A stretch of 56,093 bases of DNA, taken from Candidatus Nitrosopelagicus sp. (lineage in GTDB: Archaea; Thermoproteota; Nitrososphaeria; Nitrososphaerales; Nitrosopumilaceae). The position numbers were made by a program, and so were the translations under genes. Of the stretch, positions 32,002 through 37,128 are shown in pieces. The stretch's first letter is position 1; each line of letters opens with the position of its first letter. The notes below the pieces were generated by a model. The model had not been told where the DNA came from, made no database searches, and saw only the letters and a list, made by a program, of their open reading frames with translations. Location of the stretch: NCBI GenBank assembly GCA_028345575.1, contig JAOMDR010000005.1, positions 1 to 56,093 on the forward strand, in the 5' to 3' direction.

Positions 32002-32042
32002 AAGGATACGCTTTAATTTCAATTAATTCGCAAGTTTTTCAT

Positions 32043-32116
32043 GCCGAGGTAGCTCAGCCTGGGAGAGCACCACGCTGAAGACGTGGCTGTCGGGAGTTCA
32101 AATCACCCCCTCGGCA
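32043..32116 (+). tRNA. tRNA-Phe(GAA), integration site of the following island
   Basis: A complete cloverleaf of 74 nt with no encoded CCA. Acceptor arms are GCCGAGG and CCTCGGC, with A as the discriminator base. The D-stem is GCTC/GAGC. The anticodon stem is CCACG/CGTGG around loop CTGAAGA, giving anticodon GAA. The T-loop is TTCAAAT. The T-stem GGGAG/CACCC has one A-A mismatch (positions 52 and 62). The last 11 bases and the following TT are repeated exactly at 35520-35532, which marks the gene as an attachment site. The downstream T-run CTACTTTTTG is a likely terminator. Confidence 0.95.
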
Positions 32117-32118
32117 TT
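32106..32118. other. attL-like direct repeat at the tRNA-Phe 3' end
   Basis: CCCCCTCGGCATT is the end of the T-stem, acceptor strand and discriminator of tRNA-Phe plus two bases. The same 13 bases recur at 35520-35532. The similarity extends weakly to the left through the T-loop (TTCAAAT here, GTCAAAAA there). This is the usual geometry of tRNA-targeted integration. Confidence 0.7.
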
Positions 32119-32139
32119 CTACTTTTTGTTCAATGCCGA
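32111..32139. repeat. inverted repeat TCGGCATT ... AATGCCGA at the left island edge
   Basis: An 8-bp perfect inverted repeat pairs the tRNA acceptor end (32111-32118) with 32132-32139 across a 13-nt T-rich loop. As RNA it would be a hairpin at the tRNA 3' trailer; as DNA it may be a recombinase binding site. GTTCAATGCCG (32128-32138) also appears inverted, as CGGCATTGAAC, at 35494-35504 near the right edge. Confidence 0.5.
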
Positions 32140-32180
32140 CTCACAATAAAAAATCAAACAAATCGTTCAAAACCTATCCC

Positions 32181-32202
32181 CGGCATTCTACTCTTTGTTC
32201 AA
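32181..32202. repeat. second, partial copy of the tRNA 3' junction (old att scar)
   Basis: This 22-nt stretch, beginning CGGCATTCTACTC, matches 32112-32133 at 21 of 22 positions. That segment covers the last bases of tRNA-Phe and 15 nt beyond. The copies are 69 nt apart. The repeat suggests a second integration or excision event at the same tRNA end, leaving a short remnant between 32119 and 32180. Confidence 0.6.
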
Positions 32203-32226
32203 ATCCCTTTTTTCAAAATCTACTTA

Positions 32227-32248
32227 AGAAATTCAGTTAAGAATTTCT
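32227..32248. repeat. hairpin-forming inverted repeat inside the left island edge
   Basis: AGAAATTC (32227-32234) and GAATTTCT (32241-32248) are perfect complements around the 6-nt loop AGTTAA. The element lies in the 333-nt stretch between the adenosyltransferase gene and the first island gene, which otherwise holds only the tRNA and the att-like repeats. It may be a terminator for the minus-strand gene at 32334 or a protein-binding site. Confidence 0.45.
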
Positions 32249-32333
32249 AGATAAAAAGGAGGGATATGAGCAAAGTGAACCAACCCCACTCCCGACGCCT
32301 AATTTTTTTACTCGTTCTTGACTACCTGAACGT

Positions 32334-33377
32334 TTAGAGCCAATGCTTGTCACTTTCGTCTTGCCTTAAAGCTTGAACTTCTAGTAGTTGGGATTTTTGT
32401 TCTTCATTAAATTCAGTTACAAGACCCTTAAGATTTTCTTGAAAGGCATCATTATCCTTCCAGTCGTTTACATTAAATGCAGTCATGAGAGAATAAAATG
32501 CATTTTGTTTTTCACCCAACTCCAATTCTATGAATGATTTGGTGTACCAGTCAACAGCATTGCCAGGTTCAAATCTCATGGCATATGTTAAGTGTTGTAA
32601 TGCCTTTGATTTGTAACGTAAAACATCCTCTTTGTTATGATTCTTGTTAGTCTCTTCTACATCGGACCATTGTTGATAATATACTATATACGCACGACTA
32701 ATCTCTGCTCTCTTTTTAGAGTCGTAAGAATTTTCTAAAATACGTTGAGCTTTTAATAGATAGTCTCCTGCAGATTTCATAATTTCACATCTTGCATTAT
32801 AAGAGAATTTCTCTGACCCGTCCTTTACCCCTGTTATTGCCATTATGCTAATTGTTGTAGATACTTCTAGTAAGAGTTCAATATTCTTGCTATTTTTTAG
32901 CATTGCAGGTTTTAGAAATTCCTCTAATAATGAATTACATTTTTCCCACGTAAAGCTTTTGCTAGGTTCTTTATCACCTTCACCAAAATTAGTCCAATAT
33001 GCACTCCATGTTTTGTACGATTCAAGTAAAAAATCAACATTATCTCTCCAGTTTGCATCATCATTTGCCATGATAAGCTGAGATATGTCTACTGCATTTT
33101 CCAACTGTTGAGGATTTGCAAGAGTTTTCATTTTTAGTGTGGCTATGGTTGGATCTGCAAATTCTGGATCCATTTCCTTAAGAATTTCTAATGCGTTAGA
33201 TAAATCATCTGTGTGTATCATGCAAGTAGCCTTAAGCAGATCATAGTGAAATTTTTCAATCTTATCTAATGAATCATATTTTTCATATATTTCATCTATT
33301 GATTTTATTGCCTCAAAATGATCTCCATTTCTTGCTAATTTTTCTAGGACTTCGATATATTCCGGTGTAAAATACAA
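32334..33377 (-). CDS. TPR-like helical repeat protein of the island, 347 aa
   Basis: Starts at a TTG (33377); an A/T-rich TATA-like region lies about 26 nt upstream. The whole protein is predicted to be alpha-helical with repeat-like units, for example HFEAIKSIDEIYEKYDSLDKIEKFHYDLLKAT, LSNALEILKEMDPEF and KALQHLTYAMRFEPGNAVDWYTKSFIELELGEKQNAFYSLMTAF. The last of these is a good TPR pair. It has no signal, membrane segment or catalytic motif. Within the island it faces away from the four-gene operon. The function is unknown; scaffolding or peptide binding is plausible. Confidence 0.72.
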   Translation of the reverse strand: MYFTPEYIEVLEKLARNGDHFEAIKSIDEIYEKYDSLDKIEKFHYDLLKATCMIHTDDLSNALEILKEMDPEFADPTIATLKMKTLANPQQLENAVDISQLIMANDDANWRDNVDFLLESYKTWSAYWTNFGEGDKEPSKSFTWEKCNSLLEEFLKPAMLKNSKNIELLLEVSTTISIMAITGVKDGSEKFSYNARCEIMKSAGDYLLKAQRILENSYDSKKRAEISRAYIVYYQQWSDVEETNKNHNKEDVLRYKSKALQHLTYAMRFEPGNAVDWYTKSFIELELGEKQNAFYSLMTAFNVNDWKDNDAFQENLKGLVTEFNEEQKSQLLEVQALRQDESDKHWL

Positions 33378-33505
33378 TGTTTGAAATAATTGATTTAATT
33401 TTATATTAAAAGCGGAAGGTCAATTTTGAACCTTCCAGTTCGAATTTTACCTGTCGGTATTTTTTATGTCTTCCCAGATAATAATCAACTATTTCTTAAT
33501 CGTGT

Positions 33506-33601
33506 ATGAATCACATAGAAATCAAACTCTTGAGGAAAATTCAAGAAGAAAGAAGAAAGAAGCAACGTGGAGAACAGATGGAGTTGTTCAACAATGAGTG
33601 A
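33506..33601 (+). CDS. basic mini-protein, 31 aa, first gene of the island operon
   Basis: ATG at 33506 to TGA at 33599-33601 encodes a single charged helix, MNHIEIKLLRKIQEERRKKQ and on to MELFNNE. Its last codons overlap the next gene's ATG in the string ATGAGTGA. The same kind of junction is repeated two genes later, which argues that this frame is translated. An A/T-rich AGATAATAATC lies about 26 nt upstream. The peptide could be a coupling leader or a small regulator. Confidence 0.45.
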   Translation: MNHIEIKLLRKIQEERRKKQRGEQMELFNNE

Positions 33602-33827
33602 TAAGCCATCGGATGATTATGTGAAAGAGATGATGTGTTGTGACAACGCAGATTGTGTTCTGGAAACACAACAAAATCCATCTGCATCCAGGTTCACAGA
33701 ATCATATCATTGTAAAAATTGTAAGAAGACCATTGTGTATTACATCATACTTGAAAGATATGAGAGGTATGGCAAATTTGGAAATCTAGAATATGAGAGA
33801 AATTTGTGGGGTGTTGAATATGAGTAG
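33594..33827 (+). CDS. zinc-finger-like protein of the island, 77 aa
   Basis: I place the start at the ATG at 33594, not the in-frame GTG at 33567, because the ATG overlaps the upstream stop by 8 nt. The cysteines MMCCDNADC and YHCKNCKK give a possible four-Cys zinc site separated by a polar loop. A C-terminal helix rich in aromatic and basic residues follows (YYIILERYERYGKFG). The stop overlaps the next ATG in ATGAGTAG. The role is unknown. Confidence 0.65.
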   Translation: MSDKPSDDYVKEMMCCDNADCVLETQQNPSASRFTESYHCKNCKKTIVYYIILERYERYGKFGNLEYERNLWGVEYE

Positions 33828-34308
33828 ATCTGATAGATGGGATGATAGAGAAGCAAAATGGGATGAAACATCTTTCCATATCGGGGAGCGAACTCCTTCT
33901 AATTCCATCATTTATTGGCAGAGAAACTACCTATTGAACAAAAACAATGAAGATAATCCTGAACCAATAGATTTTCTTAGAGCCATGAAAGAATTGGCAA
34001 ATTTACAATTATCCAAATCTAATGAGGATGTGAATATGATCTATTTTGAAAGAACTGATACTGGAGATTCGATACGATTTATCTATATTTTTGGATGCTG
34101 GTATGTTGTAAGTGACTGGCAGGATGAAAGTGTATATGAAACAAAATTTGTCTATGTTGCAAGATTAACCAACAAACAAACCTCCACCATAGCGAGACTG
34201 TGGTTTGAAGACCAACCTTGGACCGGCTTTGTAGATGCGTGGAGAGTTTTGAGAGCCAACATTGACGGTAAACTTGACATCGGTGATTTAATTGGTGATA
34301 ATCCATAA
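33820..34308 (+). CDS. hypothetical Trp-rich protein of the island, 162 aa
   Basis: The chosen ATG (33820) overlaps the upstream stop by 8 nt; a longer in-frame start at 33793 is less likely. The protein is rich in Trp and Tyr (SIIYWQRNYLL, FIYIFGCWYVVSDWQDE, RLWFEDQPWTGFVDAWRVLRA) and seems to have a central beta-sheet. It has no membrane segment or known motif. Its stop shares a base with the next ATG (TAATG). I do not recognise the family. Confidence 0.7.
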   Translation: MSRSDRWDDREAKWDETSFHIGERTPSNSIIYWQRNYLLNKNNEDNPEPIDFLRAMKELANLQLSKSNEDVNMIYFERTDTGDSIRFIYIFGCWYVVSDWQDESVYETKFVYVARLTNKQTSTIARLWFEDQPWTGFVDAWRVLRANIDGKLDIGDLIGDNP

Positions 34309-34865
34309 TGAACAAAAAAGAAAAGATATTCTATTTGGGAATTATTTTTGCAATCATAATCTATGTAACTGCACATGTTAGTAATGGTCAGAACTCTGAT
34401 GAATTAAAAAAATGGTCTTTGATTGGAATTGTAATTGCAGTACTTCTTGGATTTGTTATATCCTCTCATTATGCCAGCAAATCTAGGAAAAGATGTGATC
34501 CGTTTAGTGATTCGTATCGAAAAGGAACATACTCGACGTCATTACTGGATAAAATATATGATATTTTGAGATGCGTACGTATTCCAAGGAATCACAAATC
34601 AAAAGAAAAGACCTATTCTGGAGATTATTCACAAGGATATACAAAACAAAAAACTTCCGAACCTACATACTATGATATCTTGGGCATTACAAAGTTTGCT
34701 ACAGAGCAGGAGATTAAAAATGCATTTAGAAAACAAATTTTAAAATTCCATTCGGACAAGAATCACATTGATGAAGCAGATGAGTATGTTAAATTACTTT
34801 ATATGATTAGAGACACATTACTTTCATCTGAAAAACGATTCGTTTATGATGCAAATAGGAATTAG
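34308..34865 (+). CDS. two-TM membrane protein with C-terminal J-like domain (HSD instead of HPD)
   Basis: 185 aa. Transmembrane helices lie at about residues 8-25 and 36-55. They are followed by a basic linker and a J domain from residue 121: YYDILGITKFATEQEIKNAFRKQILKFHSDKNH ... YMIRDTLLSSEKRFVYDANR. All helices of a DnaJ domain are recognisable, but the invariant HPD loop reads HSD (148-150). The membrane topology would put the J domain in the cytoplasm. It probably no longer stimulates Hsp70 in the usual way. It is the last gene of the island operon. Confidence 0.78.
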   Translation: MNKKEKIFYLGIIFAIIIYVTAHVSNGQNSDELKKWSLIGIVIAVLLGFVISSHYASKSRKRCDPFSDSYRKGTYSTSLLDKIYDILRCVRIPRNHKSKEKTYSGDYSQGYTKQKTSEPTYYDILGITKFATEQEIKNAFRKQILKFHSDKNHIDEADEYVKLLYMIRDTLLSSEKRFVYDANRN

Positions 34866-34886
34866 CATCGTGTAAAAAAGATTTAT

Positions 34887-35399
34887 TCATTCACTCGTTT
34901 TTAAAATTTTTCTTACGTTATCATACGCTTCTAATAATTTTTCTCCATTTCCTGTTATTGTATATACTTGTATATTATGACCCGTTAGATTAGTTTGAAT
35001 CCTGCTGATTGGATTATCTTTTTTCCATTCTTTAATTTCTCTTTCATCTTCTTTTTTAGCGTCTCTATGTGTAACCAACTTTAATTCGTCCATTGTTTCA
35101 AGATATTTAGCTAACATACTAGATCCTCCACCACTCTCAAGTAAAAGTGGTTTTGTAATGCCAAGCAATTTTGATTTCTCTGGATCTTCACATGTCAATA
35201 TTCTCTTGATTCCTGCTTTTGTTACAATCGCTTTAGGTTTACTTTTGTCGTTTTGAAAATCCTTCATAATGTTCAATATGGAATGGAATATCTGAGCATT
35301 TTGCAAAATTTTGTCTTGTTCTTCCATGTTGTTACGTGTATACGAATTAATTAAAAATTTTGTAACTGTTGTTTTTTCTCGATGTGTCAGATTTGACAT
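34887..35399 (-). CDS. winged-helix (PadR/MarR-like) protein of the island
   Basis: 170 aa from the ATG at 35399; an in-frame longer start at 35453 gives an odd N-terminus. A helical region (residues 1-60) is followed by IVTKAGIKRILTCEDPEKSKLLGITKPLLLESGGGSSMLAKYLETMDELKLVTHR, a winged-helix with recognition helix near the SSMLAKYLETM stretch, and a C-terminal wing TITGNGEKLLEAYDNVRKIL. It is probably the island's transcriptional regulator, facing the operon convergently. The TATA for it is not clear. Confidence 0.68.
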   Translation of the reverse strand: MSNLTHREKTTVTKFLINSYTRNNMEEQDKILQNAQIFHSILNIMKDFQNDKSKPKAIVTKAGIKRILTCEDPEKSKLLGITKPLLLESGGGSSMLAKYLETMDELKLVTHRDAKKEDEREIKEWKKDNPISRIQTNLTGHNIQVYTITGNGEKLLEAYDNVRKILKTSE

Positions 35400-35493
35400 T
35401 ATGATTATGATGGAATGGGGAAAAGACCCTCCGATTGTGATGAAATGGCACAATTATTGGCAGGATATTTCTATTCGGTATTCGCGTTTGAAA

Positions 35494-35504
35494 CGGCATT
35501 GAAC
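35494..35504. repeat. inverted copy of the left-edge 11-mer near the right island edge
   Basis: CGGCATTGAAC is the exact reverse complement of 32128-32138, 16 nt inside the right att copy. The left copy lies 10 nt inside the left one. Part of the match (CGGCATT) is shared with the tRNA end, so it may be a recombinase arm site or simply another piece of duplicated att. Confidence 0.45.
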
Positions 35505-35519
35505 AGGTCGTCAAAAAGC

Positions 35520-35532
35520 CCCCCTCGGCATT
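35520..35532. other. attR-like direct repeat (copy of the tRNA-Phe 3' end)
   Basis: CCCCCTCGGCATT is identical to 32106-32118 and is preceded by GTCAAAAAGC, weakly similar to the tRNA T-loop. No tRNA body is attached. It marks the right boundary of the island, just before the promoter of the Lys-rich protein gene. Confidence 0.7.
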
Positions 35533-35589
35533 ATAATTCTTCATAGTGAAATATTTAATAAGATGATATTCTGATTTTCATCGAATCAC

Positions 35590-35814
35590 ATGGTAGAAAA
35601 GAAAAAAACCACAAAGAAAGATGCAAAAAAGACTACAAAGAAAGCATCTAAAAAGACTACAAAGAAAGCATCTAAAAAGAAATCAAACTCTGAACCTTTG
35701 GATTCAGGAATAGTGATTGTTGATGATGATTTATCAGTAGATAAAGAAAGTGAACGTGAAGAAAGACGTGCATATTTAGAAGAAGCCCGCTCTCAAGAAG
35801 CAAGTTCAGATTAG
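35590..35814 (+). CDS. Lys-rich, histone H1-like protein with tandem repeat, 74 aa
   Basis: The N-terminal half is made of KKTTKKASK units (KKTTKKDAKKTTKKASKKTTKKASKKK in pieces), like bacterial and eukaryal H1 tails, and should bind nucleic acid. The C-terminal half is acidic (VDKESEREERRAYLEEARSQ). Two exact 24-nt tandem repeats at 35631-35678 encode the repeat, so it can expand or contract. It starts 58 nt right of the island boundary. The function is inferred from composition only. Confidence 0.75.
   Translation: MVEKKKTTKKDAKKTTKKASKKTTKKASKKKSNSEPLDSGIVIVDDDLSVDKESEREERRAYLEEARSQEASSD
35631..35678 (+). repeat. two exact tandem copies of a 24-nt coding repeat
   Basis: Both copies begin GACTACAAAGAAAGCATCTA and are identical over 24 nt, encoding eight residues (TTKKASKK). 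The repeat is in frame, so slippage would change protein length without a frameshift. Confidence 0.85.
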
Positions 35815-35848: not shown

Positions 35849-36088
35849 ATGAAAGCATTATGCATGATTACTGTGAAACCTGGCATGGTGGATAAAGTGG
35901 TTCAAATTTTGAGGAAAAAAAGAAAAATCTCTAAAGACATAATGGTTGTAACTGGACGGGCAGACATATCTGTAATTTTGAACTCATCAATAGATGAGAT
36001 TAACAATGTTGTGATTGATTTAAAAAATGTAAATGAAATTGTTAATACTGAAACACTAATTGAAGTAGAGGTGGATTTAGGATGGTAA
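35849..36088 (+). CDS. stand-alone Lrp/AsnC ligand-binding (RAM) domain protein, first of a pair
   Basis: 79 aa, covering only the C-terminal RAM fold of Lrp-type regulators: KALCMITVKPGMVDKVVQIL, VVTGRADISVIL and IVNTETLIEVEV. No DNA-binding helix-turn-helix is present. Such single-domain proteins may sense amino acids and modulate full-length Lrp proteins. It overlaps the next gene by 7 nt. Confidence 0.8.
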   Translation: MKALCMITVKPGMVDKVVQILRKKRKISKDIMVVTGRADISVILNSSIDEINNVVIDLKNVNEIVNTETLIEVEVDLGW

Positions 36089-36335: not shown

Positions 36336-36755
36336 ATGAACATTAAACGAATTGGAAATATAATATTAGAAGTAAAAGATTTGGATGCATCGATTAAATT
36401 TTATCACGAGGTTTTAGGAATGCCAATAAAAAATGAAAGACGGAATTGGGTGGATTTAGGTCAGCAATCCGGAGGAATTTTGAGTTTACATCCTGCATCA
36501 ATTACAACATCTCATACAAGTTCAACAAAAGAAAATGGAATTTTAATTGGATTAACTATCGGAGATTTAAATTCTGCGATGGATGAATTATCGGCTGCGA
36601 AGATAGAAATATTTCGAGATATTCAAGAAAGACAAGCGGGTAAGAATGCAATTATTTTAGATCCTGATGGATATATGATTTCTTTATTTGAACCTGATTT
36701 CTCAGAAAGTAAAGACAAACAAACTTCAGGATATGTGGGATTTACGCCCGAGTAA
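36336..36755 (+). CDS. glyoxalase/VOC superfamily protein
   Basis: 139 aa with the VOC beta-alpha-beta-beta-beta pattern: IGNIILEVKDLDASIKFYHEVLGMPI and NAIILDPDGYMISLFEPD. Members bind a metal and act as lyases, isomerases or antibiotic-binding proteins; the substrate cannot be told here. A CTTATATC TATA box lies about 26 nt before the ATG. It converges with the DUF6659-like gene, with a 14-nt overlap of the 3' ends. Confidence 0.85.
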   Translation: MNIKRIGNIILEVKDLDASIKFYHEVLGMPIKNERRNWVDLGQQSGGILSLHPASITTSHTSSTKENGILIGLTIGDLNSAMDELSAAKIEIFRDIQERQAGKNAIILDPDGYMISLFEPDFSESKDKQTSGYVGFTPE

Positions 36756-37128
36756 TTATTTTTTTTATTTTATTTACTAAGAGGGTATTTGATTTATTTT
36801 TTTTATTAATTGTGACATAGTATGTTATCCCATTTTTATAAAATAATAGAATATTAATTTTTTTATGAGTTATTGAAATAAATTCCACAGAACCTAATGT
36901 TTTTGATGTTTCCCCCCTTAATCTCATCATCGAGGCAATCGCAAAAAATTCATGGCGTACTAAATCTGGAGAAAAAATGGGTTTCACACCTGGTCTAATT
37001 TTTCCAGATATTGTACGACCATATTCATTGAAAACTCCGGCATAGCGTATATCGTTGGAAATTGATAGAATTTGTTCACATTTTATCCTATTCTGTGTAA
37101 CAGTTTTTGTCCAAGATTGACGGTTCAT
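36742..37128 (-). CDS. DUF6659-like hypothetical protein, 128 aa
   Basis: 128 aa, basic, with ISNDIRYAGVFNEYGRTISGKIRPGVKP near the N-terminus and beta-hairpin-like KKINILLFYKNGITYYVTIN in the second half. It resembles the truncated protein at the left window edge (IRYVGVYN). I link it to the thaumarchaeal DUF6659 family from memory. There are no membrane or catalytic motifs. The function is unknown. Confidence 0.7.
   Translation of the reverse strand: MNRQSWTKTVTQNRIKCEQILSISNDIRYAGVFNEYGRTISGKIRPGVKPIFSPDLVRHEFFAIASMMRLRGETSKTLGSVEFISITHKKINILLFYKNGITYYVTINKKNKSNTLLVNKIKKIITRA

What the first reader, a model, noticed from the sequence alone, without database searches (positions are those of the whole stretch)
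32043..35532. tRNA-Phe-bounded 3.4 kb island without a recognisable integrase
Seen: the 13 bases at the 3' end of tRNA-Phe (32106-32118) recur exactly at 35520-35532, with housekeeping genes on both sides. The six genes between are mostly unknown (TPR-like, mini-protein, zinc-finger-like, Trp-rich, membrane J-like, winged helix). Known: tRNA 3' ends are standard att sites. Inference: a mobile or non-autonomous element, perhaps carrying a defence or stress module. No recombinase is present, which is unusual.
Basis: partly seen in the sequence, partly recalled or inferred. Interest (0 to 1): 0.8.

Follow-up and report, generated by a model that had tools for sequence, protein, structure and literature searches.

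The report
Integrase-less tRNA-Phe island in ammonia-oxidising archaeon
A 3.4-kb stretch of DNA sits site-specifically at the end of a tRNA gene in an ocean ammonia-oxidising archaeon, close relatives have the empty site, and a relative carries a different small insert with the same ends, which suggests a family of hitch-hiking elements moved by a recombinase they do not carry.

Summary
The 13-mer CCCCCTCGGCATT at the tRNA-Phe 3' end (32106-32118) recurs at 35520-35532 and nowhere else in the 1.10-Mb assembly. Of 31 genus genomes (Nitrosopelagicus) 23 show the locus: 17 have no gene-sized insert, an 18th (G015) is empty on the contig that holds its tRNA, two have a ~70-bp relic, one breaks exactly at the repeat, and two are filled: the window and G014. 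Three near relatives join the 13-mer directly to the window's right-flank sequence, so 32119-35532 is a precise insertion.

New here: G014 carries a different 1.36-kb insert (other genes, also no integrase) at the same site, with the same 13-bp repeat and related ends. Copies of an 11-bp box, CGGCATTGAAC (9-11 of 11 matching), stand at the same spacings in both. The right-end signature is in 2 of 250 family genomes, only at these two ends. A decayed second junction at 32165-32203 suggests repeated use of the site.

Best reading: non-autonomous integrative elements recognised by a site-specific recombinase acting in trans. No helper was found. The cargo (TPR protein; mini/Zn-ribbon/Trp-rich/membrane-J operon; winged helix) has no defence match; its function is unknown.

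The parts
32042..32117 (+). tRNA-Phe(GAA), target gene, left intact by the insertion
   Evidence: ARAGORN; Rfam
32106..32118 (+). left copy of the 13-bp direct repeat (att core, in the tRNA 3' end)
   Evidence: same 13-mer at the empty site in 7 relatives
32119..35532 (.). inserted DNA (3,414 bp, counting the right repeat copy)
   Evidence: absent in G019, G017 and G015, which join the 13-mer to the sequence found at 35533 onward
32112..32122 (+). outer left box CGGCATTCTAC (9/11 to CGGCATTGAAC), overlaps the repeat
32128..32138 (-). inner left box, inverted, 11/11, starts 16 bp after the outer box
   Evidence: G014 has a 9/11 box at the same spacing
32165..32203 (+). second, decayed tRNA-end/left-end junction (31 of 39 identical to 32096-32134), 69 bp further in; relic of an earlier or tandem integration (inference)
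   Evidence: boxes of 8-9/11 at 32165-, 32181+, 32197-
32334..33377 (-). TPR-like protein, 347 aa (TTG start); no relative in 250 family genomes
   Evidence: weak TPR-type matches below cut-off; AF2 model all helix but low confidence, pLDDT 56
33506..33601 (+). mini-protein, 31 aa, first gene of the operon
33594..33827 (+). Zn-ribbon-like protein, 77 aa (cysteine pattern by eye); overlaps the mini-protein gene by 8 nt
   Evidence: weak DUF6487 match below cut-off
33820..34308 (+). Trp-rich protein, 162 aa; member of a small family seen in G074 and G119
34308..34865 (+). J-domain protein, 185 aa, with hydrophobic N-terminal part and HSD in place of HPD (both by eye)
34887..35399 (-). winged-helix-like protein, 170 aa
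   Evidence: HTH_45 E 2.6e-4, below the curated cut-off; AF2 model unusable, pLDDT 43
35494..35504 (+). right box CGGCATTGAAC (11/11), starts 32 bp before the right core CGGCATT
   Evidence: identical and equally spaced in G014
35520..35532 (+). right copy of the 13-bp direct repeat

Best explanation
32119-35532 is a non-autonomous integrative element in the 3' end of tRNA-Phe. SHOWN: a precise insertion at the 13-bp core, against empty sites in close relatives; a second element with unrelated cargo at the same core in G014; end boxes alike in sequence and equal in spacing in both elements; no integrase gene recognised in either. INFERRED: a site-specific recombinase, most likely a tyrosine integrase, encoded elsewhere (another element, plasmid or virus passing through the cell) binds the boxes of a circular form (attP) and the tRNA-Phe 3' end (attB), exchanges strands inside CCCCCTCGGCATT, and so inserts or removes the element without harming the tRNA. 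The ends are the moving part; the genes between are passengers that can be exchanged. The junction relic at 32165 suggests that the site was used more than once. How the element reaches a new cell is unknown.
For: Empty sites: 23 of 31 genus genomes hold the right-flank gene at strong match; 17 have tRNA-Phe beside it with no gene-sized insert (spacing varies by tens of bases, e.g. G024, G029), G015 shows tRNA, core and 32 b identical to the window's right flank, G025 and G004 have a short relic, G013 breaks at the repeat, G000 and G014 are filled. Second element: 1,360 bp between its repeats, same 13-bp repeat, ends 35/49 identical to the window's against a best of 29/49 in 200,000 random interior pairs; no cargo similarity better than E 0.013, which is the right box itself. 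The right-end signature GGCATTGAACAGN{5,30}GGCATT is in 2 of 250 family genomes, only at these two ends, with 0 reversed-pattern hits. CGGCATTGAAC with at most 1 mismatch: 2 in the island, 0 in 52,602 b outside it; right box to core 32 bp and left boxes 16 bp apart in both elements. No integrase in either element. Short att cores are usual in these archaea: median 17 bp, tRNA genes in 39 of 68 (PMC6563490, sections 5 and 6 read).
Against: No helper was found. G000's two integrases lie in modules whose repeated motif (TACCATTTGAG; C9, C13 by eye) is unlike the boxes, and exact box strings are absent from both loci. G014 has no PF00589 match at all. Metagenome contigs could not be scanned. Only two elements are known, and G014's inner left box is only 9/11. 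At up to 2 mismatches the box occurs 13 times outside the island and 4 times in it, at up to 3 mismatches 93 and 10 times, so a single box proves little. No circular form was seen.
Confidence: 0.62

Rival explanations
1. Grounded remnants: each element once carried its own integrase between the same ends, lost it after integration, and no longer moves.
For: A decayed second junction lies only 69 bp inside the left end, so something between was deleted or failed to persist. The site is empty in most relatives that show it.
Against: No PF00589 match in contig C37 even with stops read through. Repeats and right box are intact in both elements, the operon frames are intact, and both elements lack the gene.
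Confidence: 0.25
2. The filled locus was imported whole by homologous recombination between flanking housekeeping genes; the element itself may be old and immobile.
For: Flanks are conserved and syntenic; G000 and G014 flanks are 92% and 89% identical over about 600 and 700 bp, which I take to be enough for recombination.
Against: It explains spread, not the origin of two elements with related ends and unrelated cargo at the same base.
Confidence: 0.08
3. Casposon-like or other transposon insertion, the 13 bp being a target-site duplication.
For: Casposons occur in these archaea (PMC6563490) and a 13-bp duplication is near the size known for them (size recalled, not from a call).
Against: No Cas1 (PF01867) match in G000 or G014; one match, over the cut-off but partial and with a stop, in 31 genomes (G007). 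The inner boxes lie at unequal distances from the two repeat copies, so they are not terminal inverted repeats. Both insertions use the identical base and orientation.
Confidence: 0.03
4. Chance repeat beside a tRNA with ordinary gene content differences.
For: None beyond the shortness of the repeat.
Against: 0.002 copies expected genome-wide; exact empty sites.
Confidence: 0.01

Closest known systems
Cryptic integrated elements of Thaumarchaeota (Krupovic et al. 2019, PMC6563490; sections 5 and 6 and passages read)
   Same: tRNA 3'-end target, short direct repeat (8 bp upward, median 17), many unknown genes, sites verified by empty loci
   Different: That survey used three routes (ORFan-rich loci, MGE signature genes, integrases) and found no element in Ca. 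N. brevis. These two are small (3.4 and 1.4 kb) and have no recognised integrase
ssrA-specific genomic islands of Dehalococcoides (PMC3146451; abstract and passages read)
   Same: Cargo islands that share a 3'-end repeat and a conserved motif beside it; 16 of 31 hold the integration module
   Different: Serine recombinase system, tmRNA target, bacterial, tandem islands; here no helper is known
Additive flexible genomic islands and tycheposons of streamlined plankton (PMC10872708; passages read)
   Same: Small-genome plankton, tRNA-anchored variable cargo; the additive island is marked by repeats of the last 20 bp of tRNA-Lys
   Different: Tycheposons hold a tyrosine recombinase and are larger (4-200 kbp as given there)
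CALIN arrays and other hitcher elements (PMC11389934; passages read)
   Same: Cargo between recombination sites, recombinase supplied in trans
   Different: CALIN attC sites belong to integrons; neither integron integrase nor attC was tested for here

Membership tests
Site-specific tRNA-targeting integrative element | Direct repeat of the tRNA 3' end at both borders | tested here: met
Site-specific tRNA-targeting integrative element | Empty site in relatives with one core copy | tested here: met
Site-specific tRNA-targeting integrative element | Own integrase gene | tested here: not met
   PF00589 only on C9 and C13 of G000, none in G014 (serine recombinases were not searched genome-wide; no Pfam match to one in the cargo)
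Non-autonomous (trans-mobilised) integrative element / CIME | att-like ends shared with an autonomous element or helper | tested here: inconclusive
   ends alike in two integrase-less elements; no helper (unusable)
Non-autonomous (trans-mobilised) integrative element / CIME | Excision or transfer with a helper | not testable with these tools
   no reads or cells
Casposon | Cas1 (casposase) in the element or genome | tested here: not met
   none in G000 or G014 (assemblies 86% and 74% complete)
Casposon | Terminal inverted repeats next to the duplication | tested here: not met
   inverted boxes exist but at unequal distances from the repeats
Tycheposon | tRNA border plus tyrosine recombinase | tested here: not met
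   tRNA border yes, recombinase no
Defence island | Match to a known defence protein | tested here: not met
   PADLOC, five window proteins, no match; G014's 127-aa protein has weak coiled-coil-type matches (best JetC E 0.0014) that I do not trust

The most novel reading that the evidence does not exclude
Open-ocean ammonia-oxidising archaea have a tRNA-anchored cassette system: units as small as 1.4 kb, made only of passenger genes between box-bearing ends, are swapped in and out of one chromosomal site by a recombinase supplied in trans, an archaeal counterpart of integron cassettes that lets a streamlined 1.2-Mb genome sample genes without keeping the machinery.
Probability: 0.17. Interest if true: 0.78.

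Novelty: new variant of a known kind. Interest (0 to 1): 0.5.

Why it matters
How streamlined, abundant nitrifiers gain genes is open: Ca. N. brevis was the one of 21 thaumarchaea without an identifiable integrated element (PMC6563490, section 5), although two putative genomic islands had been reported in its genome, and a population study saw no strong organisation of its basin-specific genes into islands (both in PMC9239043, passages read). Elements of 1.4-3.4 kb without integrase are easy to miss. The end signature given here makes them searchable in metagenomes and names the site where a helper recombinase should act.

Tried and rejected
Cargo in viral contigs: TPR, Trp-rich and J proteins, no relative. 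Whole element and Trp-rich protein against phage records: no match; plasmid records were not searched. Left-end pattern with 2 mismatches in 31 genomes gave 7 hits besides the three in the two elements: for L218, L220 and L221 the context was read and no tRNA was found, likewise no tRNA in L213; L214-L216 carry the same matched sequence as L213 and were not examined. The own integrases as helper: no exact box strings in their loci, different repeated site. G014's cargo protein has matches in 202 of 250 family genomes, G014 included; the best other copy, G000 C34, was read by eye only, without a repeat search; the only tRNA in the 18 kb fetched around it is tRNA-Arg, about 7.5 kb away, so I do not count it as a third island. 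Trp-rich relatives in G074 and G119: no tRNA on those contigs. Structure models: winged helix pLDDT 43, TPR 56, too poor for a fold search, so none was run. DNA folding of the left end gave a hairpin (z -2.9, 2 of 200 shuffles as good; right end z -0.25), which I read as the inverted boxes, not as evidence of single-strand recombination. The Zn-ribbon and Trp-rich proteins were scanned without their first residue (the Trp-rich one also in 34, 50, 71 and 76). The J protein, Zn-ribbon and mini-protein were not searched in the family genomes. Eight of 31 genus genomes did not show the locus and are not counted.

Full report
Observation. The tRNA-Phe gene is at 32042-32117. The 13-mer at 32106-32118 recurs at 35520-35532; these are the only two exact copies in the 1,098,022-base own assembly, which is 86% complete. 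The expected number by base composition is 0.002.

Empty sites. The gene at 35849-36088, right of the island, was used to find the locus in 31 same-genus genomes. Strong matches (54-100% identity) were found in 23, the own genome included; weaker matches to other genes were set aside, and 8 genomes had no strong match. In 19 of the 23 ARAGORN finds tRNA-Phe in the same locus. Reading out of the tRNA gives 17 sites without a gene-sized insert, although the spacing varies by tens of bases (G024 and G029 are longer), and two (G025, G004) with an extra stretch of about 70 bp flanked by GGCATT. Of the other four, G000 is the window; G014 is filled; G015's left contig reads tRNA, CCCCCTCGGCATT and then 32 bases, to its end, that equal the window's right flank, so I call it empty, although its other contig looks chimeric; G013's contig stops at the base before the 13-mer and cannot be judged. 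The exact 13-mer stands at the empty site in 7 relatives. In G019, G017 and G015 it runs directly into ATAATTCTTCATA(A/G)TGAAATATTT, the sequence at 35533 of the window.

A second element. G014 (contig length equal to JAOLYB010000002.1, Candidatus Nitrosopelagicus sp. isolate AH-558-N14) has 1,360 bp between two copies of the same 13-mer at the same tRNA. It carries two ORFs: one of 296 aa as listed from its first start codon, which lies in the tRNA, of which I used a 247-aa part, and one of 127 aa. Neither matches an integrase family (31). The two elements share no cargo: the best blastn match between them is the right box (15 bp, E 0.013), then weak matches (E 0.047 upward); tblastx gives one match of E 0.28. 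The host flanks are 92% and 89% identical.

The ends. The first 22 and last 27 bases inside the repeats are 35/49 identical between the elements; 200,000 random interior pairs reached at most 29. The common unit is an 11-bp box, CGGCATTGAAC. In the window it stands at 35494 (+, 11/11), 32128 (-, 11/11), 32112 (+, 9/11, overlapping the core). In G014 the same three places hold 11/11, 9/11 and 10/11, at the same distances: right box 32 bp before the core CGGCATT, left pair 16 bp apart. Outside the island the window has no box with at most one mismatch in 52,602 bases, but 13 with up to two and 93 with up to three.

A junction relic. 32165-32203 is 31/39 identical to 32096-32134, the stretch that runs from the tRNA T-loop through the core into the left end; the next best place in the window is 25/39, at the right repeat; 35 of 189 million 39-base pairs within 3.5 kb reach 31. 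It keeps the three-box, 16-bp layout with boxes of 8-9/11. I read it as a decayed boundary of an earlier or tandem integration, now 69 bp from the functional one. This is inference; no right box lies between the two junctions.

Cargo. Four genes overlap in one operon: mini-protein 33506-33601, Zn-ribbon 33594-33827, Trp-rich 33820-34308, membrane-J 34308-34865. The J domain is clear. The Trp-rich protein has relatives in G074 and (two copies) G119, 26-27% identical in the alignment. In G074 a different Zn-ribbon-like protein lies directly upstream and a hydrophobic protein directly downstream of the relative (read by eye), the same order as here, although the two Zn-ribbons are not convincingly alignable (E 0.086). 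The TPR protein has no relative in 250 genomes. The winged-helix protein has two weak matches, one with stops. PADLOC gave no match for the window proteins scanned. Function remains a guess; a membrane-anchored, chaperone-linked module is as far as I would go.

Mechanism and who moves it. In the own genome PF00589 matches at C9 and C13 only, in modules with a Rep-like and a helix-turn-helix-like protein (names by eye). The C9 module's repeated site, TACCATTTGAG, is unlike the boxes, and no exact box string lies in either locus. G014 has no PF00589 match in a 74%-complete assembly; 7 of 31 genus genomes have one. Cas1 is not found in either genome. So the recombinase acts in trans or acted in the past. 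I prefer trans action (0.62) because two unrelated cargoes keep intact repeats and right boxes with no trace of an integrase, but loss after integration (0.25) is not excluded. Serine recombinases were not searched genome-wide.

Comparison. Thaumarchaeal integrated elements commonly use tRNA 3' ends and short cores (PMC6563490, sections 5-6 and passages). Islands without an integration module that share a target repeat with others are known in Dehalococcoides (PMC3146451, abstract and passages), and plankton have tRNA-anchored additive islands and tycheposons (PMC10872708, passages). I found no description of this element or its ends in the listings of searches of an open-access library, which misses most subscription papers. 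The archaeal tyrosine recombinase review was seen in passages only (PMC8371274).

Verdict. A real site-specific insertion, one of two with common ends; a new variant of a known kind, with an unknown mover.

Noticed in passing
L013 and L014 (G025, G004), just after tRNA-Phe: An extra stretch of about 70 bp flanked by GGCATT, holding what looks like an inverted piece of the tRNA T-arm (GATTTGAGACGCGC); perhaps the relic of another element at the same site.
   Followed up: partly
L205 8987-11894 and L206 1197-4402 (G000 contigs C9, C13): Two look-alike small integrase modules (integrase, helix-turn-helix-like, Rep-like) in the own genome; C9 has the repeat ATTACCATTTGAG 1.86 kb apart.
   Followed up: partly
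L034 4150-5088 (G015 contig C37): An ORF joins a synthetase-like protein to the tail of the lysine-rich ORF; probably a chimeric contig.
   Followed up: no
L240 and L241 (G119), L239 (G074): Trp-rich relatives lie in clusters of small genes with Zn-ribbons; in G119 (L240) also a weak CARF/HTH-like match and a weak PIN-toxin match.
   Followed up: partly
window 35590-35814: Lysine-rich ORF right of the island whose short repeat differs in copy number between relatives (by eye).
   Followed up: no
L187 (G002): A weak PF00589 match (below cut-off) lies close to a tRNA-Val gene; possibly another tRNA-targeted element.
   Followed up: no
L238 (G000 C34, place 36485-36859): Own-genome relative (45% over half the protein) of the G014 cargo protein; matches occur in 202 of 250 family genomes, so G014's passenger is kin of a common chromosomal protein.
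   Followed up: partly
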